Shown piece by piece: positions 35,207 to 54,318 of a stretch of DNA of 64,000 nucleotides. Below the pieces are notes generated by a model. It had not been told where the DNA came from, ran no database searches, and worked only from the letters and a program-made list of their open reading frames with translations. This stretch comes from Ruegeria discodermiae (GTDB taxonomy: Bacteria > Pseudomonadota > Alphaproteobacteria > Rhodobacterales > Rhodobacteraceae): assembly GCF_030758345.1 (NCBI RefSeq), contig NZ_JAVAMO010000002.1, positions 1-64,000 of the forward strand, written 5' to 3'. Position 1 is the first letter of the stretch. Each line of letters opens with the position of its first letter. The translations under genes and the position numbers were made by a program.

Positions 35207-36133
35207 ATGATCAAGATATTTTTGCTCGGCCAATTTGCGGTCACTGGAAAAGGCGGGCGCAGCGCCGATCTGCACACCCGCAGGGGCACCGAATTGTTCA
35301 CGTTTCTGGTTCTAGAATCGGGCCGCACCTTTCACCGGGCCCGTCTAGCCGAACAGTTCTGGGGGCATCTGCCCGAGGCGCGCGGGCGCAAGGCGCTGAA
35401 CACCGAGCTTTGGCGCATCACCGCTGCGCTGCGCGCCATCGGCATGGATGTCGCTACATCGCTTGTCCGCACGCAGCACGAGGTCGGCTATGCGCGCCAG
35501 CCCGATCATGAACTGGATGTGGATCATCTGAACCGGGCGGCTGACATCGTGGCCTCCGAAGATCCCGAGACGGTATCCGCCGCCGATCTCGGCCGGATTG
35601 AGCGCGCGGTCGAGGCCTATCGCGGTGATCTGCTGGAATCGGTCTATTCCGACTGGTGCCTGCTTTGGCGCGAAAGCCTGCGTGCCAATTTCACCGAGGC
35701 GCTGGAGTTTCTGCTGCGCGCCGCGATGGGCCGGCAGGACTGGGCGTCGGGCCTGCGCCATGGGCGCGTGCTGCTGGCGCTGGACCCGCTGTTGGAACAT
35801 GTGCACCGGGCGTTGATGCGCTGCCATTACCATGCCGGGAACCGGCCGCTGGCGCTGCGCCAATACGCCCATTGCGAGCAGATCCTGCGAGAAGAGCTGG
35901 GCGTCGCCCCAATGGACGAGACGCGGCGGATTCAGGAAACCCTGCTGGCCGTCACGCCGCGTCCCAGCCGCGCCGTTGAACAACGCGTGGTCGAGGCGCC
36001 GCCGCGTCAGGACGGCACCCGCCGAAGCCCGGCGCAGAAGGTCGATCTGGCGCTTGCTAATATCAACACCGCGCGCGGCTGGCTCGAAGATGTCAGCCAA
36101 CAGCTGCGTGGCGGACCGTCCAAACCCGCCTGA
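35207..36133 (+). CDS. SARP-type activator (winged helix plus BTAD)
   Basis: 308 aa. The N-terminal about 100 residues form an OmpR/SARP-type winged helix (IKIFLLGQFAVTG; LHTRRGTELFTFLVLESGRT; RARLAEQFWG; ARGRKALNTELWRITAAL; a closing wing around EVGYAR). This is followed by a bacterial transcriptional activation domain of helical repeats (IERAVEAYRGDLLESVYSDW; WASGLRHGRVLLALDPL; QILREELGVAPMDETRR), then a Pro/Arg tail. A strong AGGAGG ribosome site precedes ATG 35207. SARP proteins activate neighbouring clusters by binding direct repeats of 11-bp period, and such repeats occur upstream of the next genes (36246-36276). It is the only regulator next to the unknown cluster that follows on the same strand. 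What signal it senses is unknown. Confidence 0.85.
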   Translation: MIKIFLLGQFAVTGKGGRSADLHTRRGTELFTFLVLESGRTFHRARLAEQFWGHLPEARGRKALNTELWRITAALRAIGMDVATSLVRTQHEVGYARQPDHELDVDHLNRAADIVASEDPETVSAADLGRIERAVEAYRGDLLESVYSDWCLLWRESLRANFTEALEFLLRAAMGRQDWASGLRHGRVLLALDPLLEHVHRALMRCHYHAGNRPLALRQYAHCEQILREELGVAPMDETRRIQETLLAVTPRPSRAVEQRVVEAPPRQDGTRRSPAQKVDLALANINTARGWLEDVSQQLRGGPSKPA

Positions 36134-36245
36134 CCAAACCGCGCGCTGGCGCGTGCGCGGGTCTCTCAAAACTGTCACATTGCCGGGTCCATTCGGCCCG
36201 CTGCCGCCTGAATTTTTGCGTAACTCGTTGTTTCTAATCGTATAC

Positions 36246-36276
36246 CCCTGTGATAGCCCTGTGATCCTGCGGTGAG
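36246..36276 (+). promoter_or_regulatory. Three-fold GTGA repeat with 11-bp period, candidate SARP operator
   Basis: GTGAT occurs at 36250-36254 and 36261-36265 and GTGAG at 36272-36276, exactly 11 bases apart. The first two are part of a perfect 9-base direct repeat CCCTGTGAT (36246-36254 and 36257-36265). SARP activators recognise short direct repeats with one-helical-turn spacing near the -35 region. The site lies between the SARP gene and the first cluster gene. A -10 box after it is not obvious. The third repeat overlaps the GTG at 36272, which argues that GTG is not a start codon. Confidence 0.55.
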
Positions 36277-36337
36277 AACGCGGTGTCGCGCCCTGTGCAG
36301 ACTGGTCCGGAACCCCTGCTCTGAGCCCGAGTCGCAC

Positions 36338-36583
36338 GTGTCCCATGCCCGTCACACCCAGTCCCATCGTTTTGTCGTGATCTACCGGTGCGAACCCCGT
36401 GAGATCGCCGGTGCCGCAGAGGTCTGGCGGGGTTGGGTCGAGCGCATTCCCGATCCCCGACAGCGCGCCGAGGGAGGTCAGACCGAAGAGCGGCTCGGCT
36501 TTCACGAGTTGCAGGAGCTGCCCGCGCTCATCACCCGGCTGATGGACGAGGCCACCGCCCCCGACAGGAGAACCCGCCCATGA
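36338..36583 (+). CDS. Small unknown protein at the head of the cluster
   Basis: About 81 aa if GTG 36338 is the start; a GTG at 36272 would add 22 residues but lies in the operator-like repeats. The sequence runs HRFVVIYRCEPREIAGAAEV and WRGWVERIPDPRQRA, then ERLGFHELQELPALITRLMD, a short beta strand followed by helices. I do not recognise it. Its stop overlaps the next start (ATGA), so it is translated with the large protein downstream and is likely real. Confidence 0.6.
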   Translation: MSHARHTQSHRFVVIYRCEPREIAGAAEVWRGWVERIPDPRQRAEGGQTEERLGFHELQELPALITRLMDEATAPDRRTRP

Positions 36584-38598
36584 ATATCTCATCCTCTCCG
36601 TCCCGGCCCATGCCTGTAACGCCGCGGATCAGTTCGGGCGAGCCGTCGGCGGCGATGCCTGTGACCGTGTCACCCTCGCGCCGGGAATTGCGGCGTGCCG
36701 ACCCGTCGCTCTCGTTTCAGGTCAGCGCACCGGGAATGCGGTTTTTCGACGTGATCGTCGCCACGGAACCGGCGCTGTTTGACCCAGCCGAGGCGCATCG
36801 CCGGACGCCGAAGAATTTCCGCTCGTCCCGGCAGGATTTTCAGGGCCTTCCCATCGAGATCGAGACCGGCTTTTATATGCTGCCCCGCGCCTTTATCCGC
36901 GATGTCATCAGTCAGGAACCGCGCCCGACCCGGTTGTTCTACCTGGCGGTGGGTTACAGCGATGAAACCGCGACGGACGGGATTTATTCACTGCCCCCCG
37001 ACCGGTTTGCCGAAGCTCCGTTTGTCAGCCTCGCCGGTGATCTGAGTGCGGCGAGCCTCAGCCATGTTCTGGGCATGGCGGTGCATCGGCTGGGTTCGGT
37101 CGGGCCTGCGGGTCGGGTCATGGCGGTTGCGCCAACGCCTGCGCAAACGCCGCTGCCCCGGATGATCGGAGGGTTGCCGGTGCAGGCCCCGAACCCGCAT
37201 TTGCAGATGCCGGTTGCCTCGCCACAACCCGTCAGCGCGCCTCCGACCAGGGCGATCAACGGCCCAAGCCCGGTTGCGCCGGGTGCTGTGAACGGCCCCG
37301 CGCCGGTCGCGCCCCAGCCAGCGCGGGACACACCTGCGCAAAGCACCGCTCCGGTGGCCGCAGACCCGGCGCCCCAGAACGGTGCGCCTGCGCCTGAAAT
37401 CGTGGCTCCTCAGCCGCAAACCGATGATTTCATTGATGATGACTATGCCTATGGGGCTAGATCCGGGGCATCCGCCATGTTCCGTGACTATGACGCAAAT
37501 GCCCCGGAAGAGGACCCGGTACCACATTACGACGACGGTCTGGGGCCAATGAACGGGGCCGGTGAAGCGCCCACCGCAACGCCCATCCCGCCGCTGGACG
37601 ACACACCACCGCCCTTGCCCGCGACTGGAACCGAAGCGCCGCCAGCTCCCGTGCAACCTGTCCCTGCCCCGACGCAACCGACCACCCCTGCCCCCGCGCC
37701 CGCCGCAGGCGGTGAGGGTTGGAAAGATGCGCTGGTCCAGACGGTTCTGGCCGAGGGCGTCGCGGGTCGCTACGAGGCGCTCAACCTTGACGGGGCGTTC
37801 CGGGGGCGTCTGGGCCAGACCCATCCCTATTACCAGCGCGCCCATGACGGGTTGTCGCTGGGGCCGCATCAGGCCGGGCAGGACAGCGGTGAGCTGGGTG
37901 AATTGCTGACGCTGATGCAGGCCGCCGACCCGGCCGGGTTTGCCGCCACCTTCGGCCCCGCTGGCGATCAGCTGATCGCTGTTACCACCGCCTCGGGCCC
38001 GCTGAGTGGCGATGCGCCGGACGGGCGTGGCGCGCGGGTGCAGCCGGTTGAGGGTCGCGATATCTGGGAAGACCCCTGGGTCGAACGCTTCCGCAAGGCC
38101 GCGCAGCATCCGCCCTACCAGGCAGCGATGCGCGCTCAGATCATCGCCCGGCGGCTGGAGCCGATGTTGCCGGTGGCCGACGCTCTGGGCATCGCAAACC
38201 GGCGCGGGCAGGCGATGCTGTTGACGCTGGCGATCCTGAGCGGTGTGCCACAGGCGATCACGCTCAGCCGCGCAGCGATCAACCCGTTTGACACACCGGC
38301 CAAGCTGGCCGCCGCCTTGCAGGCGCTGGGGCATGACAGCCTGAACGCCTTCCAGACAGCGCAAGGCCTTGCGCCCACCGAAACGCTTGATGATGCCAGC
38401 CACTTCGCGCTGCTGACTGCGCTGCGCGGGCTTGGCCCAGAGGCACCGGTGCAATTGCCCGATCCAGACTCCACCCTTGATACGCTGGTCACCTCGCTGG
38501 GGCCGGGTCCGCAGGGCGATGCGCTGCTGAAGCTGCGGGTCTCGCCTGCCTTCCGTGACAACGGTGCCACAGCCGCACTGGGGGCAACCCATGCATAA
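36580..38598 (+). CDS. Three-part protein: unknown N-domain, Pro/Ala linker, lysozyme-like C-domain
   Basis: 672 aa, no signal peptide. Residues about 44-175 form a globular mixed domain (SLSFQVSAPGMRFFDVIVAT; GFYMLPRAFIRDVI; FYLAVGYSDE; SLSHVLGMAVHRLG) that I do not recognise. A Pro/Ala-rich linker of about 200 residues follows, containing an acidic patch (DDFIDDDYAYG). From about 380 the sequence WKDALVQTVLAEGVAGRYEA, then LNLDGAFRGRLGQTHPYYQR and HDGLSLGPHQAGQDSGELGE resembles the lysozyme/chitosanase-like domains that often accompany bacterial caspase- or protease-containing proteins. ATG 36580 overlaps the previous stop (ATGA). The last 8 bases overlap the next gene. A muralytic role is only inferred, and without export it could be directed at an incoming or lysing target. 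Confidence 0.6.
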   Translation: MNISSSPSRPMPVTPRISSGEPSAAMPVTVSPSRRELRRADPSLSFQVSAPGMRFFDVIVATEPALFDPAEAHRRTPKNFRSSRQDFQGLPIEIETGFYMLPRAFIRDVISQEPRPTRLFYLAVGYSDETATDGIYSLPPDRFAEAPFVSLAGDLSAASLSHVLGMAVHRLGSVGPAGRVMAVAPTPAQTPLPRMIGGLPVQAPNPHLQMPVASPQPVSAPPTRAINGPSPVAPGAVNGPAPVAPQPARDTPAQSTAPVAADPAPQNGAPAPEIVAPQPQTDDFIDDDYAYGARSGASAMFRDYDANAPEEDPVPHYDDGLGPMNGAGEAPTATPIPPLDDTPPPLPATGTEAPPAPVQPVPAPTQPTTPAPAPAAGGEGWKDALVQTVLAEGVAGRYEALNLDGAFRGRLGQTHPYYQRAHDGLSLGPHQAGQDSGELGELLTLMQAADPAGFAATFGPAGDQLIAVTTASGPLSGDAPDGRGARVQPVEGRDIWEDPWVERFRKAAQHPPYQAAMRAQIIARRLEPMLPVADALGIANRRGQAMLLTLAILSGVPQAITLSRAAINPFDTPAKLAAALQALGHDSLNAFQTAQGLAPTETLDDASHFALLTALRGLGPEAPVQLPDPDSTLDTLVTSLGPGPQGDALLKLRVSPAFRDNGATAALGATHA

Positions 38599-39802
38599 CC
38601 CCCACCAGCAGGCGCAGACGCCGCATCTGGACCGGCCCGCGATTGACGCGATGCTGGCGCAAAGCAAGGCCTGGCAGGAGATGTCGCCCGCCGATCGTGA
38701 CGACATGGCCCAAGCGATGTCCAAGGTCTTTGGCTATCTGGGACAAAACCCGGCACAGGCTCCGGCCCGGCAGATGGCGCCTAACTTCAACCAGATGCGC
38801 GGCGGTGGCGGCGCGCCGCCGCCCGCTCAGCAGCCCGCACCTCCACCAGCGGCAAGCGGTGCGGCACCCGGTGGTGGGCCCGGCGGCGGTCAGGGCGGCA
38901 GCAACATCTTTCAGGATGCGGGCGACGCCACCCAGACGATGCTGGGGGCCATCGGCTTCCCCGATTTCTGTGCCTCTCTAATCCAGGGCACATTCCAGGC
39001 CATCGTCGACAGTTCCATCCAGCAGATGGAGGCGTATTCCAACCTGCTGGCCGAAACCGCCAAGACCGTCGACGTGTTCATGGAGGACAATATCTCGGAC
39101 GATATGGCCCGGGACCACCTGACCTCGAATTACGGTGATATCTTCCAGAAGGACATCACCTCGGGCCAGCCGCAGATGACGGTGAACACGACGGCGGTGG
39201 GCGCTGGGCAATTGCCGAGCTTCCTCAAGGATCTGGGCTTTGACAGCCCGATGGATCTGGACCAGAACGCGGTCGAGCAGGTGGTCGTGCCCCAGACCCG
39301 CAAGACCCTGGCCGAGATGCGGCATCAGTCGCTGGCGACCATGGTGATGATGGGGATCAACCGCATCGTGGTCTCGGATGGCGAGATCAACGCCAAGCTG
39401 GTCTTTCACATCGATGCCAGCCAGAGCACCTCGCTCACCTTCTCCGACTACAAACCGACCAATTGGTCGCTGGCGGGGCAGTTGGGCTCGAACCAGTTTG
39501 CGGCAAGCGGCCTGCTGGTGAACACCACCAACATCAACGCCCAGTCCGAGATCAACATGAATGCTGATCTGACCGGTGAGGTGCGGGTGCGGTTCCGCTC
39601 GGATTATTTTCCGCTTGAACGCTTTGCCGACAGCGCTGCGATCCAGCTCATCAACCAGAACGCCCATGTTGCAACCCAACCGCAACAACCCGCCGAGGGC
39701 GCAGCCCCGGGTCAGGGCGGCGAGACCCCGCCGCAACCGACCGCCCCCCTGCCACCGCCGCCGCCCTTGCCGCCAATGGATAGTAACGGAGGAGGCACAT
39801 GA
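38591..39802 (+). CDS. Unnamed family, paralogue 1 of 4
   Basis: 403 aa, no signal peptide. It has a helical N-terminus (WQEMSPADRDDMAQAMSKVF), a Pro/Gly-rich linker (about 60-110), then three blocks shared with the proteins at 45742, 47946 and 49334: GFPDFCASLIQGTFQAIVDS with SIQQMEAY (from about 122), LATMVMMGINRIVVSDGEI with Arg at about 258, and ADLTGEVRVRFRSDYFPLER with Asp at about 338. The tail is Pro-rich (LPPPPPLPPM). Between the second and third blocks strands alternate with Ser/Thr-rich segments. No known family is recognised. It overlaps the gene upstream by 8 bases and the one downstream by 4. Confidence 0.8.
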   Translation: MHNPHQQAQTPHLDRPAIDAMLAQSKAWQEMSPADRDDMAQAMSKVFGYLGQNPAQAPARQMAPNFNQMRGGGGAPPPAQQPAPPPAASGAAPGGGPGGGQGGSNIFQDAGDATQTMLGAIGFPDFCASLIQGTFQAIVDSSIQQMEAYSNLLAETAKTVDVFMEDNISDDMARDHLTSNYGDIFQKDITSGQPQMTVNTTAVGAGQLPSFLKDLGFDSPMDLDQNAVEQVVVPQTRKTLAEMRHQSLATMVMMGINRIVVSDGEINAKLVFHIDASQSTSLTFSDYKPTNWSLAGQLGSNQFAASGLLVNTTNINAQSEINMNADLTGEVRVRFRSDYFPLERFADSAAIQLINQNAHVATQPQQPAEGAAPGQGGETPPQPTAPLPPPPPLPPMDSNGGGT

Positions 39803-40083
39803 TCTGCGCGACGCTCGCCCAGACCCTGACCGCGTTGGCCGACGGCGCAACGCCCGAGCATCCCGGCCTGTCCGTGACCGAGGCCGAGATCGACCTGCCG
39901 CTGCTCGTGTCGCTGGAACGTGGGGCCGACGGGCCTGTCTTTGTTGCGCACCCGCCCTGGTCGGCCTTCCGGTCAGGGTTCGAGCCGGTCGCACATCGTG
40001 CGCGCATCACCATTCACGAGGCACCGCATCAGGCGCTGCCGGTTACCACAACCCCAGCCACCGGACCAGACGAGGCGAAGTGA
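39799..40083 (+). CDS. Small beta-domain protein, trypsin-co-occurring-like
   Basis: 94 aa. After a short helix (CATLAQTLTALADG) come beta strands LSVTEAEIDLPLLVSLERG, GPVFVAHPP and RARITIHEA. The pattern (strand, acidic-hydrophobic strand, hairpin, variable loop, final HRARI-type strand) resembles the small trypsin-co-occurring (Trypco) domains known from comparative genomics of bacterial conflict systems, and also the N-terminal part of the next protein. This is a shape-level resemblance, not a proven match. Start and stop overlap both neighbours (ATGA and TGATG), so it is translationally coupled. Confidence 0.55.
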   Translation: MICATLAQTLTALADGATPEHPGLSVTEAEIDLPLLVSLERGADGPVFVAHPPWSAFRSGFEPVAHRARITIHEAPHQALPVTTTPATGPDEAK

Positions 40084-41105
40084 TGTCCCCCGCCGGTGGC
40101 TATCCGATTGAGGAGTTTCTTGAGGCGATCACTGCCCAGCTTGATCAGACGCAGGATGCGCTGCGGCTCAAGGCCGTCAACCGCCCCCTGACCTTCGCGC
40201 TGAAGGATTTCAACGTCGATCTCAAGGTGTTCGTCGAGATGGATCAGGCCGGGCGGGTCACCTTCCGCCCCGCCGCCCCAAACGAAGAAGGAGCCAGCAC
40301 GGTGAGCATCGGTTTCACCACCATAACGCGCCCGATGATCGAGGAGAACACGATCTCGATGGAAATGGCCAATGCGCCCACGCTGGATGAGTTGGGGCTG
40401 GCCCCTGACGAGCGGCGGCAGCTGGCACGCGTCGGAGTGCGCAACGCCGCGCAGCTGCGCAATCTGGAGCGCAATGCGGGCGATGAGGGCCTGTCGCGCC
40501 ACTCCGGCATCAATCTGGGCCGCATTCGGGGCGCGCTCAATCTGGCGCGTCCGCGATTAAGCGATGTGGTCGATCCTGAAAGCACGGCACCAGAGGTGCC
40601 AGTTCCCAACGCAACAGCACCGGATCTGCCTACCCCGGACCTGCCGCCGCAACCGGCGCGCCAACCAGACCCCCCAAGCAATGGCGCGATCCCGCCGCAG
40701 CCCGATCCGGCCCCGCCGCCGCAACCCGGTGGCCTCTGGCCACCGCGCGGCCCGCTCTCTCCGGCTGCGCCACAGCCTGGGCCGATCGATCCTGCGCCAA
40801 CGCCTGATCAATCCCCGCCTCCGATCTCAAACCCGATCGCAGACCGGCTGCGACAGCACCGCCGCAAGCTCGCGATCAAGCCCGATGCCCGCAATATCGA
40901 GCTGCGCGGCGCCAACCTGACCGATGGTGGCCGCCTGCCAGTGGCCCGGCTCGACGGGCAGAGCCTGAACCTCTTGGCGGCCAAGCCGTCATCCGTCTCT
41001 TTCGCCCTGCCGCAAGGCTGGGCCATGGGACCCGGACGGTTGATTGTCGAGATGCCCGATGGCGAGATGGAGGATTTCGATCTCAGCGGAGGGTCCGGCG
41101 CATGA
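40083..41105 (+). CDS. Unknown modular protein: Trypco-like beta domain, helix-hairpin-like domain, Pro linker, Ig-like domain
   Basis: 340 aa. Residues 1-90 (YPIEEFLEAITAQLDQTQDA, then LTFALKDFNVDLKVFVEMDQ and STVSIGFTTITRP) look like a trypsin-co-occurring module. About 100-160 has an HhH/SAM-like helical pattern (LDELGLAPDERRQLARVGVR, NAAQLRNLE, INLGRIRGALNLARPRLSDV). A Pro-rich linker (about 165-250) leads to a short C-terminal beta sandwich resembling IPT/Ig-like folds (IELRGANLTDGGRLPVARLD; MGPGRLIVEMPDGEMEDFDL). No signal peptide or catalytic motif. A longer open frame begins at 39576, but the upstream part is the shadow of the neighbouring genes. It overlaps the subtilase gene by 4 bases. 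Confidence 0.6.
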   Translation: MSPAGGYPIEEFLEAITAQLDQTQDALRLKAVNRPLTFALKDFNVDLKVFVEMDQAGRVTFRPAAPNEEGASTVSIGFTTITRPMIEENTISMEMANAPTLDELGLAPDERRQLARVGVRNAAQLRNLERNAGDEGLSRHSGINLGRIRGALNLARPRLSDVVDPESTAPEVPVPNATAPDLPTPDLPPQPARQPDPPSNGAIPPQPDPAPPPQPGGLWPPRGPLSPAAPQPGPIDPAPTPDQSPPPISNPIADRLRQHRRKLAIKPDARNIELRGANLTDGGRLPVARLDGQSLNLLAAKPSSVSFALPQGWAMGPGRLIVEMPDGEMEDFDLSGGSGA

Positions 41106-42463
41106 GACGCAGCGGTCACCTCCAGCTCAAGCTGCGGCAGGGCGTCGAGACCCGCGCACCGGCGCATCTGGATGTGCTGGATGGAGCGCGCCGAGCGTCA
41201 GGATCGGTGGATGGCAGCGGTGATGTGGACCGCGCGATCCTGCGCCAGACCACCGGAATGCGGGCGCGCCGGGTGTTCCATGCGGGCGCCCATGTCAACC
41301 GGATCGGCCAGCGCGACGCTGACTATAACGATTTGGAAACCAAGCTTGGTCTGTCACAGGTCTTGTGTATCGAGCTGGCGGAACCAGTACGTGCCGATGA
41401 CGTGATCAAGGCGCTGCGCGATGCCGATGCTGTGGATTGGGTCCGTGCCGAGCCGCTCTCATCGGTGCCTCCAATGCACGAGGATCGCGACCACAATGCT
41501 GACCCGCGCGCCCCGTTCGATCATGTCGGGGCGCTGGCGGCGCTTGCCATCGAACCGGGATCACACGCCATTACCGTGGCGGTGATCGATACCGGTGTGG
41601 CCTTGGAGCATGAGGAATTCAGCGGTCGCCTTGTTGCGGGCTATGACACGGTCGATCTGGGTATGGGCCAGATCAGCGAAGGTGTGTCGTTGGTGGGTGA
41701 CAGCCTGGGTCGCGATTTCTGCGCCCGCGATGAAACCGGTCATGGCAGCCATGTGGCGGGCATCATCGGTGCGCGTGGGCTCTCGATGACCCATGGCGTC
41801 GGTGGGCAAAGCCGCATCGTGCCGGTGCGTGCATTGGCGGCGGCGCGGGCGGGGGAAGGTCCGGTCTTTGGCGTTGGGGGGCTGTCGGATATCGACGCTG
41901 CCATCAAAGCCGCCGTCGATTTGGGTGCCAAAGTGCTGAACATGAGCTTTGGCACCGCCCGCGATGATCTCGACCCATTGGCCCCGCCGCCCCATACCGA
42001 TGCCATCGCTTATGCCACCGCCCGCAATGCGATCCCGGTTGCTGCGATGGGCAATTCCGGGCTGAGCGAGGAATACTTCCCCGCCGCCCTGCCTCAATGT
42101 ATCGCTGTTGGCTCCATGGCGCTGGATGGCCGGGTCTCTGACTTTTCGACCAAAGGTCCGCATATCGCGCTCTGCGCGCCGGGCGAGGCGGTGCATTCCA
42201 CCAAGCTGCATGGCTATGGCCGCTCGACCGGGACCAGCCATGCGGCACCTTTCGTTTCGGGCGCTGCCGCTCTGTTGGCGGCCCGGGCGCGCAGGCGCGG
42301 TCATGACCTGACCACCGAAGAGGCACGCCAGGCGCTGTGTTATTCCGCCGAAAACCATGGCCGCCAGCCGGATGAGGATACCGGCTGGGGCATGTTGAAC
42401 ATTCCCGCCGCGTTGTCGCGGCTCGACACCATTATTCCGGCATATGAGGAGGTAAGCCCATGA
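41102..42463 (+). CDS. Subtilisin-like serine protease (S8), no signal peptide
   Basis: 453 aa. Residues 1-130 are a non-catalytic pro-region-like segment. The catalytic triad is complete: Asp 163 in VAVIDTGVALEHEEFSG, His 214 in DETGHGSHVAGIIGA, Ser 379 in STGTSHAAPFVSGAAALLA, and the oxyanion Asn lies in AAMGNSGL. The protease domain runs to about 440. There is no signal peptide, so the enzyme should be cytoplasmic unless exported unusually. It lies in the centre of the cluster, overlapping both neighbours by 4 bases. It is one of two protease genes and may process the four paralogues or another cluster product; this is inference. Confidence 0.9.
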   Translation: MRRSGHLQLKLRQGVETRAPAHLDVLDGARRASGSVDGSGDVDRAILRQTTGMRARRVFHAGAHVNRIGQRDADYNDLETKLGLSQVLCIELAEPVRADDVIKALRDADAVDWVRAEPLSSVPPMHEDRDHNADPRAPFDHVGALAALAIEPGSHAITVAVIDTGVALEHEEFSGRLVAGYDTVDLGMGQISEGVSLVGDSLGRDFCARDETGHGSHVAGIIGARGLSMTHGVGGQSRIVPVRALAAARAGEGPVFGVGGLSDIDAAIKAAVDLGAKVLNMSFGTARDDLDPLAPPPHTDAIAYATARNAIPVAAMGNSGLSEEYFPAALPQCIAVGSMALDGRVSDFSTKGPHIALCAPGEAVHSTKLHGYGRSTGTSHAAPFVSGAAALLAARARRRGHDLTTEEARQALCYSAENHGRQPDEDTGWGMLNIPAALSRLDTIIPAYEEVSP

Positions 42464-47010: not shown

Positions 47011-47949
47011 ATGCCCGACCCCGCTGCCACGCTCTCGCGCTCGCTGGACCATGTGGCCAGCCTGCTCGACCGCGCGCGTCCGGGGTTTCCGGCGACGGTC
47101 GCGATGGGGCTGGGCGGCGATCCGCTATTCATCGATCTGCCGGAATATCGCGGTGGTCTTGGCGGTCAGATCAGCGCCGAGGCGCTGCAGGTGGTGGCCG
47201 CGCTCTACTTCTCCGCTGAGATCGAGGGCACCTATTTGATGAGCGTGGGTGAGGAACTGGCCGCAAACCGCTTTACCCTGAACCTGACCGACCGCGAGGC
47301 GGCTGAGCGGCTGGAGCATCTGGCTGATGTAATGCAGCAGGGCTGGGTGGGGCGTGATCTGCGCAACCAGATCTTTGCGCGGGTGTTCGGTGTGGGTTAT
47401 GCCGACCCCAATCTGGGTGACACCGCCGTCAATCGCGAGTTCGAGCCGCAATTGGCACGGTTCTGCATCGCCCTCTTGCGGGCGGCGCAATCGCTGGGTG
47501 GGTATAGCCCCTCGACCGGGACGGCAATGCGCGCAGGTGTGGCGGCGCAGTCGCTGCTGGGCGCGCTCTCTGGTCGGATGCAGGGCAACACGCTGATCGT
47601 GGCCGAACGGTTGTCGCAGCAGTTGCGGGTGGCGCTGGATGCGCTCAACCACTCGGGTCTGGCGACGCTGTTCCGGGGCGCCAATGCCTGGGATGTGGTG
47701 CGCAATGTGCTGGGGCCGGACACGCCCGATCTGGCCGGTCATATCAACCGCGCCCAGACCGGCCTGCGTCTGATCGGCTGGATGGCCGATCACCTGCCCG
47801 CCCTGCGCAGCGCCGACAGCCGCGCAATTGCCGCAGCCATTTCCAGCGAACCACAGGCCGCTGGCTGGGCCGAGCTCTGGCTCACGGCTGCCGGAATCGA
47901 TCCGGCACCGCAGCCGACCCATCAGAGCGCGCCGGGGTGGTTGCAATGA
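47011..47949 (+). CDS. Unknown protein homologous to the C-terminal half of the 714-aa protein
   Basis: 312 aa, largely helical. Shared anchors with the protein at 42460: IFARVFG at 121, AERLSQQLRVAL at 198, NAWDVVRNV with Trp 227. Spacing between the second and third anchors is identical in both (29 residues). It lacks the N-terminal and central parts of the larger protein, so it looks like a stand-alone copy of that domain. The gene overlaps the third paralogue by 4 bases (ATGA). No signal peptide, membrane helix or catalytic motif. Confidence 0.75.
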   Translation: MPDPAATLSRSLDHVASLLDRARPGFPATVAMGLGGDPLFIDLPEYRGGLGGQISAEALQVVAALYFSAEIEGTYLMSVGEELAANRFTLNLTDREAAERLEHLADVMQQGWVGRDLRNQIFARVFGVGYADPNLGDTAVNREFEPQLARFCIALLRAAQSLGGYSPSTGTAMRAGVAAQSLLGALSGRMQGNTLIVAERLSQQLRVALDALNHSGLATLFRGANAWDVVRNVLGPDTPDLAGHINRAQTGLRLIGWMADHLPALRSADSRAIAAAISSEPQAAGWAELWLTAAGIDPAPQPTHQSAPGWLQ

Positions 47950-49337
47950 CTCGCTTCAACAGCCTGCCCGCCCCCTATAATCGCGCGCCCTCGCCCGAGG
48001 GTATCCGGCCCGGCGCTGAAACCGTGTCGCTGGTGCAGACCCAGATCGATGCGCTCTTGAACCGCACGCCCAGCTTTTATGCGCTCAGCGCCAAGGACCG
48101 CGACCGGATGCGCGGGCAGTTGACCAATATCAGCGCCTATGCCGCCGAATTGGCGCGCGATGCCTGGGCGCAGACCCAGAAGCTCGGCCAGACGCCGCTG
48201 GTGCGGCATGAACGCACCTACCGACCGGTTGCGCAGGACCAGCCAGCCCCGCAGGCACAACCTGTTGCCCGCACGCAGGCCGCTCGCGCCAACCTGCAGA
48301 CATCGGCCACCGGCCGTGTCGCCGATATCACCCAGTCCACCTTACGGGCCATCGCCTTTCCGACCTTCGTTGCGGACCTGATCAACGGCACGTTCGACGC
48401 CATCATCGGGACTACGATCAAGCAGATGCAGGCCTTTATGGAACTGGTCGAGAACGTCTCGAAATCCGTGGCCGAGTTCACCCGCGACAACATCACCGAC
48501 AATCAGGCGCGGGATTTTCTGGTGCAGTCCTACCCGGACCTGATGCAGATCGACACTTCTGAGGAAACCCCCCGCGTCAGCCTGACCGAGGCGGGCGAAG
48601 AGGCCGATGGCAGCGCGCTGGAGGGGATGCAGGGCCGTCTGGGCCTGCCCGACCCGGTTGCCTCGCTGGATGAAGAGACGATCGAGGAACAACTGGTCCC
48701 TGCCGCCCGCCGTCGTCTGGCGGAATCGCGGTTGCAGATGCTCAGCTCGATGGTGATGCTGGGTCTGCAGCGCATCGTCATCCGCCATGGGCGCTTGCGG
48801 GCCACCATGGGCTTCCATATCGACGCCAGCGACCGCGCCCATGCGGAAGAAGCCTCGACCTTCGATTTCAGCCATCAGAACTCGGTTCAGGGCATGTTCT
48901 ATGTGGCGTTTTCGGCGCGCACCTCGGTGGCTTATGTCAGTTCGCAGCAATCCGACAGCGACAGCGCCATCAACGTGCAGGCCGATCTGACCGGCGAGGT
49001 TGATTTGACGTTTGAGACCGATTACCTGCCGCTGAACCGTCTGGCCCGCGCCGAAAGCATCGAGCGCATTCGCGGCAACACCCCCAACCCCGAGGCCAAC
49101 CACCCGATCAACGCCGCCGCAGGCATGACCCAGCGCAGCGCCAGTGGGCCGTCTGCGGCGCAAGTGGTCTCGGACCGGATGCAGGCCCATGCACAGGAAC
49201 CCGCCCCGACCATCGCTGATGGCCTGATCGATGCCGCAGGCCAGGCCGGGCGGGCCGCAACCGGTGCGGTGGGCAGCGCCGTCGGCGGCGCGGTCGAGGG
49301 CGCAGGCGCCACTGTCACGGATGGAGGCGGCGGATGA
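47946..49337 (+). CDS. Unnamed family, paralogue 3 of 4
   Basis: 463 aa from ATG 47946. An N-terminal helical region (FYALSAKDRDRMRGQLTNIS) is also seen in paralogue 4 as FYQLPADAQSKMRGDLERIT, so the similarity extends into the N-terminus for this pair. Shared blocks are AIAFPTFVADLINGTFDAII (Phe about 138), LSSMVMLGLQRIVIRHGRL (Arg about 276) and ADLTGEVDLTFETDYLPLNR (Asp about 359). The C-terminus has an about 100-residue Ala/Gly-rich tail (GAVGSAVGGAVEGAGATV). No cysteine is present. It overlaps both neighbours by 4 bases. Confidence 0.8.
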   Translation: MTRFNSLPAPYNRAPSPEGIRPGAETVSLVQTQIDALLNRTPSFYALSAKDRDRMRGQLTNISAYAAELARDAWAQTQKLGQTPLVRHERTYRPVAQDQPAPQAQPVARTQAARANLQTSATGRVADITQSTLRAIAFPTFVADLINGTFDAIIGTTIKQMQAFMELVENVSKSVAEFTRDNITDNQARDFLVQSYPDLMQIDTSEETPRVSLTEAGEEADGSALEGMQGRLGLPDPVASLDEETIEEQLVPAARRRLAESRLQMLSSMVMLGLQRIVIRHGRLRATMGFHIDASDRAHAEEASTFDFSHQNSVQGMFYVAFSARTSVAYVSSQQSDSDSAINVQADLTGEVDLTFETDYLPLNRLARAESIERIRGNTPNPEANHPINAAAGMTQRSASGPSAAQVVSDRMQAHAQEPAPTIADGLIDAAGQAGRAATGAVGSAVGGAVEGAGATVTDGGGG

Positions 49338-50542
49338 ACGACATGATGACCCAATTTCAGGACACCAACCCGCTGCCCGGTCCGTTTGGCGAAAACACTG
49401 GGCCGGAGATGACGACCTCTCCGGCGGTGCAGGCGCTGGCCGCGGGTCAGGTCAAGGCGCTGCTAGAATCCGCGCCCGCCTTCTACCAACTGCCCGCCGA
49501 CGCACAGTCGAAGATGCGCGGAGATCTGGAACGGATCACCACCTATACAGCCACCCTGATCGAGGATGATTGGACCCAGTCCAAGAAGCTCGACCAGACC
49601 CCGGTTGTGCGCGAACAGCGCGTGGTCGACGGCACGATGACGGCCCCGGCCCGCGCGCAGGCCGAAGGGTTCCAGCCCAATCAGGAGGGCGGCTTCACCC
49701 CGGTCGCAGCTTCGAACGTTGCCCGCATCACCGAGGATACCTTGAATGCCATTGCCTTCCCGACCTTTGTCGCGGATCTGATCAAAGGCACCTTTCAAGC
49801 CATCGTCGACAGTTCGATCCAGCAGATGGAGGCCTACGCCGAATTGCTGTCGAACGTGGCCAAGACCGTGCAGCAATTCGAGGCCGACAACATCACCGAC
49901 AACAACGCCCGCGACTGGCTGGCTGGCGCCTATCCGCAGGTGATCCGGCTGGATACGTCCTCGGGTCAGCCACGCTTGGTCCCGCAGGAGGGCGCGGATG
50001 ACGCGCAGCAGCCAAATTTCCAGGGTGATCTGAACCTTGGCGAACAGGTCACCAGCGTCGACGAGGAGAGCATTGAAACGCTTCTCGTGCCCGCCGCGCG
50101 CCGCAAGATTGCGCAATCGCGCCAGCAGACGCTGGCCACCATGGTGCTGATGGGCATGAACCGCATTGTTGTCACCCGGGGCCGGATCAAAGCCGCCATG
50201 GGCTTTCGTATCGATACCACGGATACATCGCGCGCGGAATCGGCGCAGAAATTCGATTCCAAGACCGAAGCATCCGCCCGCTACGGCTGGTTCCTGTCGC
50301 CAGTCAAAGCCTCGATGAAAACCACCGTCAGCTATGTTTCAAGTTCCAAGAAATCATCGGAATCCGAGATCGATGTCTCGGCCGATCTGACTGGCGAAGT
50401 CGATTTGCGGTTCAAATCCGATTACTTCCCGCTGGAACGGTTCGCCGACACCGCCGTGATCGCGCAGATTCAGCAGAACACCCCGAACCCGGGCGCAAAC
50501 AAGCCCATCACCGGCGCACCCGGAGGGCAGCAACAGCAATGA
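49334..50542 (+). CDS. Unnamed family, paralogue 4 of 4
   Basis: 402 aa. Shared blocks are AIAFPTFVADLIKGTFQAIV with SIQQMEAY (Phe about 142), LATMVLMGMNRIVVTRGRI (Arg about 277) and ADLTGEVDLRFKSDYFPLER (Asp about 363). It is closest to paralogue 3, with which it is contiguous, consistent with a recent tandem duplication. The C-terminus is short (PGGQQQQ). The region just before the last block (VSYVSSSKKSSESEID) is Ser-rich as in paralogue 3. It overlaps paralogue 3 by 4 bases and is 51 bases from the double-protease gene. Confidence 0.8.
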   Translation: MNDMMTQFQDTNPLPGPFGENTGPEMTTSPAVQALAAGQVKALLESAPAFYQLPADAQSKMRGDLERITTYTATLIEDDWTQSKKLDQTPVVREQRVVDGTMTAPARAQAEGFQPNQEGGFTPVAASNVARITEDTLNAIAFPTFVADLIKGTFQAIVDSSIQQMEAYAELLSNVAKTVQQFEADNITDNNARDWLAGAYPQVIRLDTSSGQPRLVPQEGADDAQQPNFQGDLNLGEQVTSVDEESIETLLVPAARRKIAQSRQQTLATMVLMGMNRIVVTRGRIKAAMGFRIDTTDTSRAESAQKFDSKTEASARYGWFLSPVKASMKTTVSYVSSSKKSSESEIDVSADLTGEVDLRFKSDYFPLERFADTAVIAQIQQNTPNPGANKPITGAPGGQQQQ

Positions 50543-50593
50543 CCCTCTGCGCCGGACATAACTCATCATTTTCGATCCCAGAAAGGACATGCC

Positions 50594-53485
50594 ATGGCCA
50601 TGCCGCTTGACTACGCCCGTGCCCGCCCCTTTGCCGCCGTCAATCCCATCATTGATGCCACCAATCCTTGGGACGCGATCCGGCAGATCGCCAGCTTTGC
50701 CGCGCGGCACCAGAATTTCCGCGTAGGGGTGCAGAACACCAGCTATTTCCCGTTCACGGCCATCTGCAAACTGGTGATGACCCGGCCCTCGGGCACCTAT
50801 GGTGGTACGGGGTTTTACATCGCGCCAGACCTGATTCTGACAGCCGGGCATAACCTCTTTGGCAATGCCCCTGGCACCTCGACGCTGGAGGAGGCCACGT
50901 CGGTGTCCATCCGCCCCGGCCAGCAAAGCAACTCCAATATCCCGCACCGGTTCAGCGTGCGGACGCAGGACTGGACGATCCACCCTACCTGGCGCAGTTC
51001 CGGTGCCAGCGACCGGACCCATGACATGGCGGTGATCCGGGTTACCCAGGGCCCGCCCAATGGCGAGCATTTCCATCTGATCAACTATTCCCCCTCGCCA
51101 GAGGCCCCGATCGCGGTCTGCGGCTATGGCGGGCAGGATGTGGCCAGCGACCGCCAGCATCTGGATATCGACCGGGTGCGCCGCCTGACCGGCGGGGGCG
51201 AGATCGTCGAGTACAACCTGCAGACCCGCAAGGGCAATTCCGGCTCACCTGTCTTTGCCCATTTCAACAATGACAGCTCTGGCGGCGATCTGCCCGAAGC
51301 GATCCCGGTGATGGGCGTGCATGTGGCGCGAGGCCTGAGCGGGGACAGTCACCACAATCGCGGTGTGTTGCTGACACCGGACAAGATCGACTGGGCGCGC
51401 GGTGGCGGCATCATGTCGGTGGCCCAAAGCCTGTCGCGACCCGGTGTTGTCGGGGGGTTGCCGCTGATGACCCGCTCACGCGCCTCGGTGGGTGGCCTCC
51501 CTTTGATGCCGGCCCAGCCGATGCCCGTCGCAATGCCTGCGCCGGAACCCGCGCCAATGATGCCCAAAGATCCCGCGGGTGGTGCCGGGCCAACCCGGAG
51601 CGAGGCCCCGGTCACGGCGCAGGGTTACTATGCTCAACCCTTTGCGCGCAGCTTCATCGTTGCCAATACCAGCCGGGGCATGAGCGTGTCGCGCCGCACC
51701 TTCGGGCATGACACCCATGACATTTCGGGCACTACGGTGCTGGAGGTTTCGGTACCCAACATGCCCGATGGCGGTTCGGTCCGCTGGAACATCCCTGACG
51801 CAGATGACCGCACCCGCGTGCTGTTCGAGGCCGGGTCTGGCACCGCGCAAAGCGCCAGCGGTACCCGTGTCACGCTGCGCTCGCTGGCACCCGGCGTGGC
51901 GCATGTGGATTGCATGGTCAAGGATTCCTCGGGCACCACCATCGAATCCAACAAATATCTCGTCAGTTCACCGCATTTCGTGAAGATCGTCTTCGACGCC
52001 AATGTCGATACCTTCCTCGACGGTCTCGGATTACGCAGCCGTCGCGCCGCGCTGATCGACGAGATGCGCGAAGTGATGCAGCTGCTCTATGAGGACACCA
52101 ACATACGCCTGATCTTTCCTGGCGAAAACCTGCCCGCCCATCTGGTGGTGGGCGCAAATGCCGGTTTCCCCGGCGGAGAGGCAGTCGCGGCTTCGGTCTC
52201 GATCGCCAATGTCGATGCGCAGGTGGGCGCGAACGACCCGGAAGAGAGCCACGATACCGGCACGCCGACCGCCTTCGGCACCAGCACGCTGGGCCGCAAT
52301 CACCAGCCGGGCGATCTGCCTGCGCCGCTGAACCTGCATAATGTGGCCTCGGTCCTGCTGGGTCATATGCGGGTGATCGACGAGGTCGAAACGGTCGAGG
52401 ATACGCTTGCCGGTGGCAGCCAAAGCTCTGCCAATCTGGATCTGGCGGCGCAGATGTATGGCCGTCTGATGGGCGAAACCACCTCACATGAGGTCGGGCA
52501 TTTCCCGCATGGCAGCTTCATTGTTCATGGCGGTTCGCTGATGCAGAGCGGAAGCGACCGGAGCTTTGCCGAACGCACCGGCATGGCACCGGGCTCGGGC
52601 GGGGCGATCCTGACTGATAATGGCCGCAACACTATCAACCGTCTCAGCGACGCCAATCGCCGCGCCATCGAGAATGTGCTGCCGATCGACCCGCCGCTTG
52701 ATATCGCCGGGGAGCGCGCGCGCGGACGCGTTGGCAGCTTCAGCATGGGCCGCGCCTTCTCGGACAACACCGTGCATCTGCCCGGCGCGACGGTTTTGGA
52801 GGGATGGCAGGCAGAGGTGCTGATCTTTGCCATCGAAAACGCCATCCGCGCAACGGCGGGCGCGATCAACCCGGCCACCTATCTGGCGGCGGCCTTCATC
52901 GATTTCGATATGATCCTGACGATCTGCGACCGGCTTGATGTCACCATCGGCTTTGGTGGCGGGGTTGGCGCGGGTCTTGGGGATGGCGCCACCGCCGGGG
53001 CGGGCATCGTGTTTGCGCCGGGCCGTCGCATCGGGTTCTACGGCGCTCTGTCCGAGGTCACCGGCTGGGTCGCCTCTGCCGGGGTGAACGGCCAGTTCAC
53101 CGTGGTCCGCGGCGGGCCGGAAAACTTCGGCGGCACCAGTTATACCCATGGGGTCACCGTGGAAACCATCGGATGGTTCGATGACGGGCTGGTGGGGATG
53201 CCGGTTGGCGCGCATGTGATCACCAACACGCAGGATCAGCCCATCGGTGTGACCTTCGAAATAGGCCTCAGCGCCGGGGTGCCGACGCTGTCCCTGATCG
53301 AGGCGACTGCCCAGACGGTGCACACCCGCACCACAATCGCCACGCAGCAGGGTTTGGTCCGGCCTTATTCCATGGGCACCACTGATCCCAACGGGGACAT
53401 GAAGGCGGCGGCAATTGCCGAAGCGATCCGCAAAGGGGCCACGCCCGAAGCGGCGGCGCGCTTTGTCGATCAGCTTTTTACCTAG
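50594..53485 (+). CDS. Double peptidase: V8/trypsin-like serine protease plus Ig-like and HExxH metallopeptidase domains
   Basis: 963 aa, no signal peptide. Residues 1-300 are a chymotrypsin-fold protease of the V8/glutamyl-endopeptidase type: His 86 in ILTAGHNLFG, Asp 144 in RTHDMAVIRV, Ser 216 in RKGNSGSPVF. A Pro/Met-rich linker (about 300-350) follows. About 365-455 is an Ig-like domain (VLEVSVPNMPDGGSVRWNIP; AHVDCMVKDSSGTTIESNKY). About 460-700 contains GETTSHEVGHFPHGSF with HEVGH at 632-636, a zinc metallopeptidase signature. The last 200 residues are Gly-rich with beta strands (FGGGVGAGLGDGATAGAGIV). An in-frame second Met two codons on is an alternative start. It lies near the end of the cluster. 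Two unrelated protease active sites in one chain suggest a processing cascade. Confidence 0.85.
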   Translation: MAMPLDYARARPFAAVNPIIDATNPWDAIRQIASFAARHQNFRVGVQNTSYFPFTAICKLVMTRPSGTYGGTGFYIAPDLILTAGHNLFGNAPGTSTLEEATSVSIRPGQQSNSNIPHRFSVRTQDWTIHPTWRSSGASDRTHDMAVIRVTQGPPNGEHFHLINYSPSPEAPIAVCGYGGQDVASDRQHLDIDRVRRLTGGGEIVEYNLQTRKGNSGSPVFAHFNNDSSGGDLPEAIPVMGVHVARGLSGDSHHNRGVLLTPDKIDWARGGGIMSVAQSLSRPGVVGGLPLMTRSRASVGGLPLMPAQPMPVAMPAPEPAPMMPKDPAGGAGPTRSEAPVTAQGYYAQPFARSFIVANTSRGMSVSRRTFGHDTHDISGTTVLEVSVPNMPDGGSVRWNIPDADDRTRVLFEAGSGTAQSASGTRVTLRSLAPGVAHVDCMVKDSSGTTIESNKYLVSSPHFVKIVFDANVDTFLDGLGLRSRRAALIDEMREVMQLLYEDTNIRLIFPGENLPAHLVVGANAGFPGGEAVAASVSIANVDAQVGANDPEESHDTGTPTAFGTSTLGRNHQPGDLPAPLNLHNVASVLLGHMRVIDEVETVEDTLAGGSQSSANLDLAAQMYGRLMGETTSHEVGHFPHGSFIVHGGSLMQSGSDRSFAERTGMAPGSGGAILTDNGRNTINRLSDANRRAIENVLPIDPPLDIAGERARGRVGSFSMGRAFSDNTVHLPGATVLEGWQAEVLIFAIENAIRATAGAINPATYLAAAFIDFDMILTICDRLDVTIGFGGGVGAGLGDGATAGAGIVFAPGRRIGFYGALSEVTGWVASAGVNGQFTVVRGGPENFGGTSYTHGVTVETIGWFDDGLVGMPVGAHVITNTQDQPIGVTFEIGLSAGVPTLSLIEATAQTVHTRTTIATQQGLVRPYSMGTTDPNGDMKAAAIAEAIRKGATPEAAARFVDQLFT

Positions 53486-53571
53486 CGGCTTCGCCCGCGC
53501 CCGTATCCGGTCAGGGCCGCGCCCTGACCGTTGCGGTTGACGGTGCCGAGGCCGGTCCCGCTGGCAATATA

Positions 53572-54261
53572 GTGGTGCTGGATGAGACCCGCAGTTTTGC
53601 CGCTGACGAGGGGCTTTTTCAGTTGCCGCGCCTTGAAAGCGGTGAAGAGGTGTTCGAGGTCGATATCCCCGAGGGCCTGCAGTTGAGTCTGATCGATCTG
53701 GCAACGCCCGAGGCCTCGCTCGCCGCAGGGGCCGAACTGGAGGCGCGACCGGAGCGCGGAACAACCGGGCGGCTGCGGCTGGTGGTGCGCTGGGCGCATC
53801 CTGTGCCTGCGGGAAATGTCAGCTTCCGGCTGCGGGTCCATGCGTCAGCCGATGGCACCCCGCCGCCGGTGACCACGCCGCTGACCGAGCCCAACTCCCA
53901 CACCCGAATGCGAACGCTGATCGAGCAGGACGCGCCGGTTGATCTGGCCATTGATGGCCCGATCACAGAGGCCTTTCGGACGCAGATCATCGAGCGCGGG
54001 GGCCAGTTCATCGGGGCCGAATCCCAAAGCCATCTGGCCCGCCCGCTTGAAGGCCTTACGGCGGGTTCAATCGTTCTTATCGTGCTCGGAGTGCTTGCTG
54101 CTATCTGTATCGTGCTGGGTTTCGCCACCTTCGGCGCGGTGCTGATCGTCGCCATGCAGAAGGGGTATAACATCGAAAACGCTGGCTATAAGGTGGCCGT
54201 AGGTGAAGGTGCCGGCAGACAGGAACATGAGATGGTGTTCAACATCCGAAAACCGGAGTGA
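53572..54261 (+). CDS. Single-pass membrane protein at the end of the cluster
   Basis: At least 229 aa. Two beta-rich, lipid-free segments (EEVFEVDIPEGLQLSLIDLA; LRLVVRWAHPVPAGNVSFRL) precede one strongly hydrophobic helix (GSIVLIVLGVLAAICIVLGF plus ATFGAVLIV), and about 30 residues follow it. Only GTG codons (53572, 53575) are available as starts, with no ribosome site. Coding-like sequence in the same frame (ALTVAVDGAEAGPAGNIVVL) extends back across the stop of the protease to about 53386 with no ATG. Hence the true start is uncertain, and a -1 frameshift at the CTTTTTA before the protease stop could fuse the two. It is the only membrane-spanning product of the cluster and may anchor it. 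Confidence 0.65.
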   Translation: MVLDETRSFAADEGLFQLPRLESGEEVFEVDIPEGLQLSLIDLATPEASLAAGAELEARPERGTTGRLRLVVRWAHPVPAGNVSFRLRVHASADGTPPPVTTPLTEPNSHTRMRTLIEQDAPVDLAIDGPITEAFRTQIIERGGQFIGAESQSHLARPLEGLTAGSIVLIVLGVLAAICIVLGFATFGAVLIVAMQKGYNIENAGYKVAVGEGAGRQEHEMVFNIRKPE

Positions 54262-54283
54262 TATCCCTCGGAAGACGGGAAAC

Positions 54284-54318
54284 GGCCTGCGCGACGCAGT
54301 ATGCGGGCCTTTCTATTT
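54284..54318 (+). terminator. Hairpin plus T-rich tract after the cluster
   Basis: GGCCTGC (54284-54290) pairs with GCGGGCC (54303-54309) with one G-T pair, loop of 12 bases, followed directly by TTTCTATTT. It lies 23 bases after the last stop and would end the long operon. Confidence 0.65.

What the first reader, a model, noticed from the sequence alone, without database searches (positions are those of the whole stretch)
35207..54318. SARP-controlled multi-protease cluster of unknown purpose
A SARP/BTAD activator is followed by 14 same-strand genes, most overlapping by 1-8 bases, ending at a hairpin terminator. Recognisable parts are a subtilase, a protein with trypsin-like plus HExxH peptidase domains, Trypco-like modules and a lysozyme-like domain; the rest are unrecognised. 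No secretion system, signal peptide, ATPase or metabolic enzyme is seen. The parts recall protease-based bacterial conflict systems, but the four-paralogue core is not part of any system I know. Base composition looks like the host, so it may be a long-resident accessory system.
Basis: partly seen in the sequence, partly recalled or inferred. Interest (0 to 1): 0.88.

Follow-up and report, generated by a model that had tools for sequence, protein, structure and literature searches.

The report
Conserved operon carrying wall-degrading enzymes
A 19-kb block of mostly unrecognised bacterial genes turns out to be one tightly conserved unit, found in the same gene order in six phyla, that pairs a multi-subunit core of largely unknown folds with a changeable set of proteases and cell-wall-cutting enzymes and so looks like an undescribed machine for deploying them.

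Summary
A SARP gene and 14 same-strand genes (35207-54261) form a tight operon that is a real co-inherited system. A search by the paralogue family (PA) alone gave 68 loci; 47 hold all six core families and 44 of these keep one order. PT-bearing loci come from six phyla. The four PA proteins belong to three ancient subunits whose operon position follows their clade. The 'unrecognised' 364-aa protein (PT) has the prenyltransferase-barrel fold (Z 26.8); its presumed diphosphate-binding residues are kept in 14 of 26 relatives, lost in the window, yet the gene is under purifying selection. Beside the core sit changeable hydrolases: papain- and trypsin-like proteases, amidases, GH46-like, M15, NlpC/P60. 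Many first-gene products share one N-terminal domain (ND); both complete first genes fetched afterwards carried it. Best reading: an undescribed, regulated assembly that deploys hydrolases, probably against other cells. Conservation and PT fold are shown; delivery is inferred (0.40). Rivals: intracellular protease-based immunity, programmed lysis, prenylated-protein maturation. No phage, T6SS or PADLOC match to the core, and no description found in the open-licence papers searched.

The parts
35207..36133 (+). SARP/BTAD transcriptional activator
   Evidence: Pfam BTAD 2e-20; SARP family in 7 loci, window included, one of them on the other strand; sigma-54 activators instead in other lineages
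36272..36583 (+). small unknown protein (103 aa)
   Evidence: no Pfam match; tblastn relatives in L002, L003, L004, L005, L009
36580..38598 (+). first-gene effector: ND domain + proline-rich linker + GH46-like region
   Evidence: ND HMM 5.2e-44; C-terminal region homologous to proteins such as L010's, which match Pfam GH46
36667..37065 (+). ND, N-terminal domain shared by first-gene products with different catalytic parts
38555..39802 (+). PA-a, core paralogue, first position (true start may lie downstream)
39799..40083 (+). TC2a, small conserved core protein
   Evidence: 50 ORFs of the family in the loci; position
40083..41105 (+). TC2b: Trypco2-like domain, then HhH-like and IPT/TIG-like parts
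   Evidence: of 31 members Trypco2 in 8, TIG in 6, DUF4332 in 2 weakly; none in the window's own copy
41102..42463 (+). S8 subtilase
   Evidence: Pfam Peptidase_S8 6.4e-38; D/H/S motifs
42460..44604 (+). BIG, large core protein, part of which is homologous to U312
   Evidence: hhalign 100%, 3.9e-73; order conserved
44635..45729 (+). PT: prenyltransferase-barrel (ABBA) fold, presumed diphosphate-binding residues lost in this lineage
   Evidence: pLDDT 91.4; CymD 1.1e-12, Z 26.8; residues; dN/dS 0.061
45742..47007 (+). PA-b, core paralogue after PT
47011..47949 (+). U312, homologue of part of BIG
47937..49337 (+). PA-c1, core paralogue after U312
49334..50542 (+). PA-c2, core paralogue, second c copy
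50594..53485 (+). end-of-operon protease: trypsin-like domain, HEVGH motif, C-terminal glycine-rich stretch shared with other effectors
   Evidence: Pfam Trypsin_2 3.5e-11
53482..54261 (+). IGTM: unknown module with one transmembrane segment; a like module is fused to an Amidase_3 enzyme in an acidobacterial locus
   Evidence: 31% identity, residues 48-258 to L015:6915-8243; hydrophobic segment 3.15

Best explanation
The region is a self-contained, switch-controlled gene system that builds a multi-protein assembly and uses it to hold, mature and deploy a changeable load of hydrolases, part of which belong to peptidoglycan-cutting families. Shown: PA-a, TC2a, TC2b, S8, BIG, PT, PA-b, U312, PA-c is one ancient co-inherited unit; the PA proteins are three distinct subunits; PT has the prenyltransferase barrel, with likely active-site residues in one branch and without most of them in the window's branch; changeable proteases and wall hydrolases sit at the ends, and many first-gene products share the ND domain. 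Inferred: PA-a/b/c form the scaffold or particle, ND docks the first enzyme to it, the S8 subtilase trims or activates components, TC2b (Trypco2 plus Ig-like) is an adaptor, PT prenylates a component in one branch and is a structural relic in the other, and the load acts outside the producer's cytoplasm, most likely on other cells, since wall cutters without evident signal peptides have no target in the cytoplasm.
For: Loci were found by PA alone (best 80 of 84 confirmed matches kept, 68 distinct loci, a few from one genome), yet 47 hold all six core families and 44 of these keep the order PA-TC2a-TC2b-S8-BIG-PT-PA; 38 run on unbroken through U312 to PA-c. The 3 exceptions are L026 and L039, without the first PA hit (L026 also with a split S8), and L027 with a split PT. 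In all 68 the mapped genes lie on one strand. A Burkholderia plasmid gives the same order by independent gene calls. PT-bearing loci in six phyla, some as metagenome-derived genomes. In a tree of 95 PA proteins, position needs 7 changes against a minimum of 6 (shuffled mean 56.4). PT fold; of six sub-threshold Trp_DMAT hits in 16 genomes four fall on PT. Load, 58 end-position proteins: C70 25, Trypsin_2 11, C39_2 11, C92 8, Trypsin 6, Amidase_2 6, GH46 6, Amidase_3 2, M15_4 2, DUF3238 2, PG_binding_1 2, VanY 1, NlpC/P60 1, CHAP 1, one protein often matching several. ND precedes GH46-like, amidase/C92/C70, trypsin/C92/C70 and DUF3238 parts; 2 of 2 complete first genes fetched afterwards start with ND. 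dN/dS 0.024-0.141 for the 13 genes compared.
Against: No experiment, secretome or micrograph supports export. The PA model is of low confidence (pLDDT 69.7, pTM 0.45) and without structural match, so 'scaffold' is a guess. No known export apparatus or holin is in the operon. Protease domains outnumber wall-hydrolase domains in the load, and C70, C92 and trypsin-like enzymes could act inside the cell. The signal-peptide test is crude: the one positive control (ZnuA) scored 1.56; no window gene exceeds 1.23, but 2 of 17 effectors reach the control (L049, whose segment lies inside ND, and L013), and starts were chosen mechanically. 5 of 19 complete first genes lack ND (after correcting L049). No immunity gene was identified.
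Confidence: 0.4

Rival explanations
1. An intracellular conflict (immune) system: Trypco2, trypsin-like and subtilisin-like proteases form a proteolytic cascade that kills or shuts down the infected cell.
For: Trypco2 was defined as a trypsin-co-occurring domain in conflict systems (PMC7159879, passages seen); Trypco2 in 8 of 31 TC2b members; protease domains are the commonest load; patchy spread; the S8 protein matches PADLOC models subtilase (4.8e-21) and IetS (1e-4), the trypsin-like one LmuA (1.9e-6) and RT-Protease_XI, all over the protease domain.
Against: No vWA, MoxR, VMAP, STAND or other NTPase among the 15 genes; no PADLOC match to the core proteins given; part of the load belongs to wall-hydrolase families, which have no substrate in the cytoplasm.
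Confidence: 0.25
2. A programmed self-lysis or release cassette: the operon is switched on to break the producer's own wall, freeing proteins or killing the infected cell.
For: Wall hydrolases without evident signal peptides plus one membrane-segment protein resemble an endolysin/holin layout; control by dedicated activators.
Against: A lysis cassette needs a few genes (recalled), not six core families kept in order across six phyla; the membrane module IGTM was found in only two loci here, though many loci end before that position.
Confidence: 0.15
3. A modified-protein pathway: PT prenylates and the subtilase processes the PA proteins or TC2a, as in cyanobactin-type routes with a subtilisin and an ABBA prenyltransferase (recalled).
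For: PT-barrel fold and the E, R, K-x-Y, R, Y pattern in 14 of 26 PT proteins; S8 protease in the same operon.
Against: No obvious short precursor gene among the 15; the pattern is mostly lost in 11 of 26 PT proteins including the window (one more is mixed), although the window gene is under purifying selection, so catalysis is unlikely to be the purpose shared by all.
Confidence: 0.12
4. A domesticated phage tail, T6SS or contractile injection remnant.
For: Structural-looking paralogues beside effector genes is the layout of such devices.
Against: Ten proteins against PHROGs: best 0.0055 (unknown function), the rest 0.11 or worse, among them one short-tail-fibre model at 0.13; no PA-b relative in 50,697 phage records and none confirmed in IMG/VR by a pattern scan; no sheath, tube or baseplate family in the Pfam scans.
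Confidence: 0.03

Closest known systems
Trypco-trypsin modules of vWA-MoxR (VMAP) ternary conflict systems (PMC7159879)
   Same: Trypco2 domain and trypsin-like peptidase in one operon; several peptidases
   Different: no vWA, MoxR or VMAP; a conserved core of PA, BIG/U312 and PT families; wall hydrolases in the load
ABBA/DMATS-type indole prenyltransferases (CymD, PriB, the Streptomyces coelicolor 5-dimethylallyltryptophan synthase)
   Same: the whole PT barrel, Z 26.8 over 320 residues to CymD
   Different: only 11-17% and 7-15% identity in the listed rows; presumed diphosphate-binding residues lost in the window's branch; sits in a multi-subunit operon
Polymorphic effector systems (T6SS effectors with a shared N-terminal marker, injection-system cargo; recalled)
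   Same: one shared N-terminal domain joined to different catalytic parts, beside a conserved core
   Different: none of the known delivery-machine genes; core folds largely unknown; no immunity gene recognised
Cyanobactin-type RiPP pathways (recalled)
   Same: subtilisin-like protease with an ABBA-fold prenyltransferase
   Different: no precursor peptide gene seen; PT of the window lacks the presumed active-site pattern

Membership tests
vWA-MoxR (VMAP) ternary conflict system | Trypco domain beside a trypsin-like peptidase | tested here: met
   Trypco2 in 8 of 31 TC2b relatives, not in the window's own copy; Trypsin_2 in the window
vWA-MoxR (VMAP) ternary conflict system | MoxR/vWA/VMAP NTP-dependent core | tested here: not met
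   Pfam scan of the 15 genes shows none
ABBA prenyltransferase | ten-stranded PT barrel of repeated alpha-beta-beta-alpha units | tested here: met
   five strand pairs in a model of pLDDT 91.4; all 50 listed PDB rows are prenyltransferases
ABBA prenyltransferase | conserved Arg/Lys/Tyr diphosphate-binding residues (role recalled) | tested here: not met
   window has A71, Q144, A146, Q192, F324 at the mapped sites but keeps E59; pattern kept in 14 of 26 relatives; the mapping rests on a weak profile alignment (E 0.0045, probability 8%) and on reading by eye
ABBA prenyltransferase | prenyl transfer activity | not testable with these tools
   needs an assay
Phage tail, T6SS or contractile injection system | sheath, tube, baseplate or related genes | tested here: not met
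Phage tail, T6SS or contractile injection system | tail or tube fold in the PA proteins | tested here: inconclusive
   low-confidence model, no match
Polymorphic effector system | shared N-terminal domain with variable catalytic C-termini | tested here: met
   5 of 19 complete first genes lack it
Polymorphic effector system | cognate immunity genes | not tested
   no candidate singled out
Polymorphic effector system | delivery to other cells | not testable with these tools
   needs competition assays
Cyanobactin-type RiPP pathway | short precursor peptide gene | tested here: inconclusive
   only two short genes in the operon, TC2a (94 aa) and 36272-36583 (103 aa); ORFs under 90 aa were not examined
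Known anti-phage defence system (PADLOC-DB 2.0.0) | match of the core to a listed system | tested here: not met
   only protease-domain matches among the 10 proteins given; SARP, 36272-36583, TC2a, PA-c1 and PA-c2 were not given

The most novel reading that the evidence does not exclude
A new class of bacterial protein-delivery machine, unrelated to phage tails or any known secretion system: a scaffold of three ancient PA subunits with a prenyltransferase barrel recruited as a part (in one branch turned into a pseudoenzyme), which loads ND-tagged and end-gene hydrolases and releases them onto the envelopes of other cells, spread by horizontal transfer among bacteria of six phyla.
Probability: 0.33. 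Interest if true: 0.95.

Novelty: categorically new. Interest (0 to 1): 0.85.

Why it matters
A multi-gene core kept in one order across six phyla, with no description in the family libraries searched for most of its parts, is rare. If it deploys hydrolases without a known export route it would be a new kind of bacterial weapon or lysis machine. The natural split between PT proteins with and without the active-site pattern lets one ask directly how an enzyme becomes a structural part.

Tried and rejected
PA against Pfam: of 62 members, 9 match DUF6683 weakly (best 0.0049, not followed up), 2 a phage scaffold model (0.027), and 14 other families one member each at 0.003-0.05; judged chance. PA profile against PDB sequences: best 0.012, judged chance. 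PA as a DUF2589 relative (an idea from memory): hhalign E 0.2 against 0.36 for a reversed control, not supported. PT, BIG and TC2b profiles and one PT protein against PDB sequences: nothing credible. PF11991 in the own genome: no hit, and none of the 14 control genomes rang, so that answer says nothing. In one search the other two of six sub-threshold hits lie elsewhere, and most of the 16 genomes gave no hit on PT. Fold searches of the PA model: no PDB or viral match at E 0.001; no Z of 5 or more among 223 chains, which with a poor model proves nothing. Phage or plasmid origin: no phage match; one Burkholderia and three cyanobacterial plasmids hold PA relatives, one plasmid PT. Prevalence: 2 of 394 sampled genomes of the window's family (the window's own and one of its genus); 1 of 398 of the phylum sample, the window's own; one search shows roseobacter-type records that do carry it but did not show up in these samples. 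Terminator claim not supported. The neighbouring cyclase-AAA-TPR protein (7598-11143) has a 29% relative beside the Burkholderia copy; left open. Literature searches gave listings with no description of the operon; the library holds only open-licence PMC papers, so this is weak.

Rows dropped and limits: alignments used chosen subsets (PT 26 of 58 found; PA 62; TC2b 31 of 53; BIG 25), the PA tree 95 of 214 sequences; the 58 end-position proteins are 47 from four ORF families, 9 picked by hand and the window's 2, many cut at a locus edge. ORF calling was mechanical, so merged and shadow ORFs occur: L049 was counted without ND although its frame 6091-9888 has it, and of the three downstream stretches two (L102, L103) were spoiled by shadow ORFs. 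Loci that lie in one genome were counted apart (for example L010 with L016, L011 with L013). In one search one PA copy of G772 is split over two contigs, and G778 lacks the first half of the core.
Full report
What is in the window. A BTAD/SARP activator (35207-36133) is followed by 14 genes on the same strand up to 54261. Of these 15 proteins Pfam recognises with confidence only the SARP, the S8 subtilase and the trypsin-like domain. NCBIfam and PHROGs (10 proteins each) give nothing credible, and PADLOC (10 proteins) only protease-domain matches. On the left lie zinc-uptake genes, on the right a citrate-type and an MFS transporter. The cluster is G+C-richer than its flanks.

It is one system. 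One scan of one genome per species for 84,980 species, with the alignment of the four paralogues (PA), gave 84 confirmed matches, of which the best 80 were kept: 68 loci. I called ORFs, grouped them by similarity and mapped HMMs made from the window proteins. 47 loci hold all six families (PA, TC2a, TC2b, S8, BIG/U312, PT). In 44 of them the order is PA, TC2a, TC2b, S8, BIG, PT, PA; in 38 it runs on unbroken through one to three PA-b and U312 to PA-c. The three exceptions are L026 and L039, without the first PA hit (L026 also with a split S8), and L027 with a split PT. The other 21 loci hold fewer families, many because the contig or fetched stretch ends. The 56 loci with PT come from Pseudomonadota (48), Myxococcota (4) and one each of Actinomycetota, Acidobacteriota, Chloroflexota and Thermodesulfobacteriota; several are metagenome-derived and a few pairs share a genome. 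A Burkholderia pyrrocinia plasmid shows the same order by its public annotation, in which the core genes other than S8 are 'hypothetical protein'. Two cyanobacteria and Corallococcus hold PA with TC2b only in the stretch seen; a Tolypothrix plasmid has S8, a peptidoglycan-binding protein, a BIG/U312 relative, one PA, TC2a and TC2b, without PT. An M23 peptidase (L068) and a subtilase (L069) lie near PA in two cyanobacteria.

The paralogues are distinct subunits. Of 18 genomes searched for PA, the ten with a full system hold four or five copies, if the split copy of G772 is counted once; G778 lacks the first half, the other seven have one or two matches. In a tree of 95 of 214 PA sequences, position in the operon follows the clades: 7 changes where 6 is the least possible and 56.4 the shuffled mean. 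The b position was duplicated in one branch, the c position in the window's branch. BIG and U312 are related to each other.

The 364-aa protein is a prenyltransferase barrel. AlphaFold with 26 sequences gave pLDDT 91.4 and five strand pairs with helices between them. Foldseek and VIA-align put the indole prenyltransferase CymD first (1.1e-12; Z 26.8, rmsd 3.2 over 320 residues); all 50 rows listed in each are prenyltransferases. Weak sequence support: of six sub-threshold Trp_DMAT hits in 16 genomes four lie, by position, on the system's own PT, and a profile alignment to three clear Trp_DMAT proteins is collinear over 313 columns (E 0.0045, but probability only 8%). At the sites mapped from it 14 of 26 proteins keep E, R, K-x-Y, R and Y; 11 lack most of them, the window among them, though it keeps the E; one is mixed. 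Yet dN/dS of the window PT against its nearest relative is 0.061, within the range of the 13 genes compared (0.024-0.141). I take this branch of PT to be a kept pseudoenzyme with a structural part; that is inference.

The ends of the operon carry a changing set of hydrolases. In 58 proteins at or near these positions Pfam finds C70 in 25, Trypsin_2 in 11, C39_2 in 11, C92 in 8, Trypsin in 6, Amidase_2 in 6, GH46 in 6, Amidase_3, M15_4, DUF3238 and PG_binding_1 in 2 each, VanY, NlpC/P60 and CHAP in 1 each, one protein often matching several. So protease-type domains lead and wall-hydrolase families recur; single proteins combine amidase, C92, trypsin and C70. A domain of about 128 residues (ND) stands at or near the start of 17 first-gene products (one cut by the locus edge) before quite different catalytic parts. 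By script 13 of 19 complete first genes have it, 14 with L049 in its proper frame; three roseobacter-type loci with a short first gene, and two loci where another effector gene lies further upstream, do not (the further gene in L041 has part of ND). As a forward test I fetched the missing upstream DNA of three loci: both first genes with a complete start (L098, L100) begin with ND; in the third (L099) the contig ends inside the gene. In Nocardioides the gene after the last PA combines Amidase_3 and trypsin-like domains. The last gene of the window is a membrane-segment module that in an acidobacterial locus is fused to an Amidase_3 enzyme.

Where it acts. A crude hydrophobicity scan shows no signal-peptide-like start in the window genes (highest 1.23, control ZnuA 1.56) nor in 15 of 17 effectors; L049, inside its ND, and L013 reach the control. 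Wall hydrolases without such signals either leave by another route or wait for lysis. Together with ND, the core and the dedicated regulators (SARP here, sigma-54 activators elsewhere) I favour an assembly that deploys the load on other cells, at 0.40. Several carriers, such as Lysobacter and myxobacteria, are known as lytic or predatory (recalled, not tested).

How it spread. In even samples, PT was found in 2 of 394 genomes of the window's family (the window's own and one of its genus) and in 1 of 398 of the phylum, the window's own. Two records titled Ruegeria differ widely: the window PT is 95% identical to that of 'Ruegeria spongiae' and 33% to that of 'Ruegeria sp. R13_0', but 41% to an acidobacterial and 38% to a Nocardioides one. 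This points to horizontal transfer.

What is known. Trypco2 was defined in a study of NTP-dependent conflict systems (PMC7159879; passages read); a second paper that uses the name was seen only in listings (PMC10907252). The passages and the listings of the other searches show no description of this operon, within a library of open-licence papers only. I therefore rate it categorically new as a system, while its enzymes and the PT fold are known kinds.

Noticed in passing
window 7598-11143: Cyclase + AAA_16 + TPR signalling protein; a 29% identical relative lies directly downstream of the Burkholderia copy of the system.
   Followed up: partly
window 53482-54261: IGTM, the last gene, has one strong transmembrane segment and resembles the C-terminal part of an acidobacterial Amidase_3 protein.
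   Followed up: partly
L105 3612-13783: Tolypothrix mobilizable plasmid with a compact version of the core (one PA, no PT), two large unknown proteins and a peptidoglycan-binding protein.
   Followed up: partly
L013, L016, L018, L049, L056, L104: A DUF3467-like protein accompanies the system in betaproteobacteria, near an effector gene and a sigma-54 activator.
   Followed up: no
L085, L092 (G772) and L086 (G791): Clear Trp_DMAT-family prenyltransferases on other contigs of two genomes that also hold the system, four matches in the polyangial one.
   Followed up: no
L063, L064, L065: PA genes without the rest of the core in the fetched stretch, possibly remnants.
   Followed up: no
PA family (alignment A3): 9 of 62 PA proteins match Pfam DUF6683 weakly (best 0.0049).
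   Followed up: no
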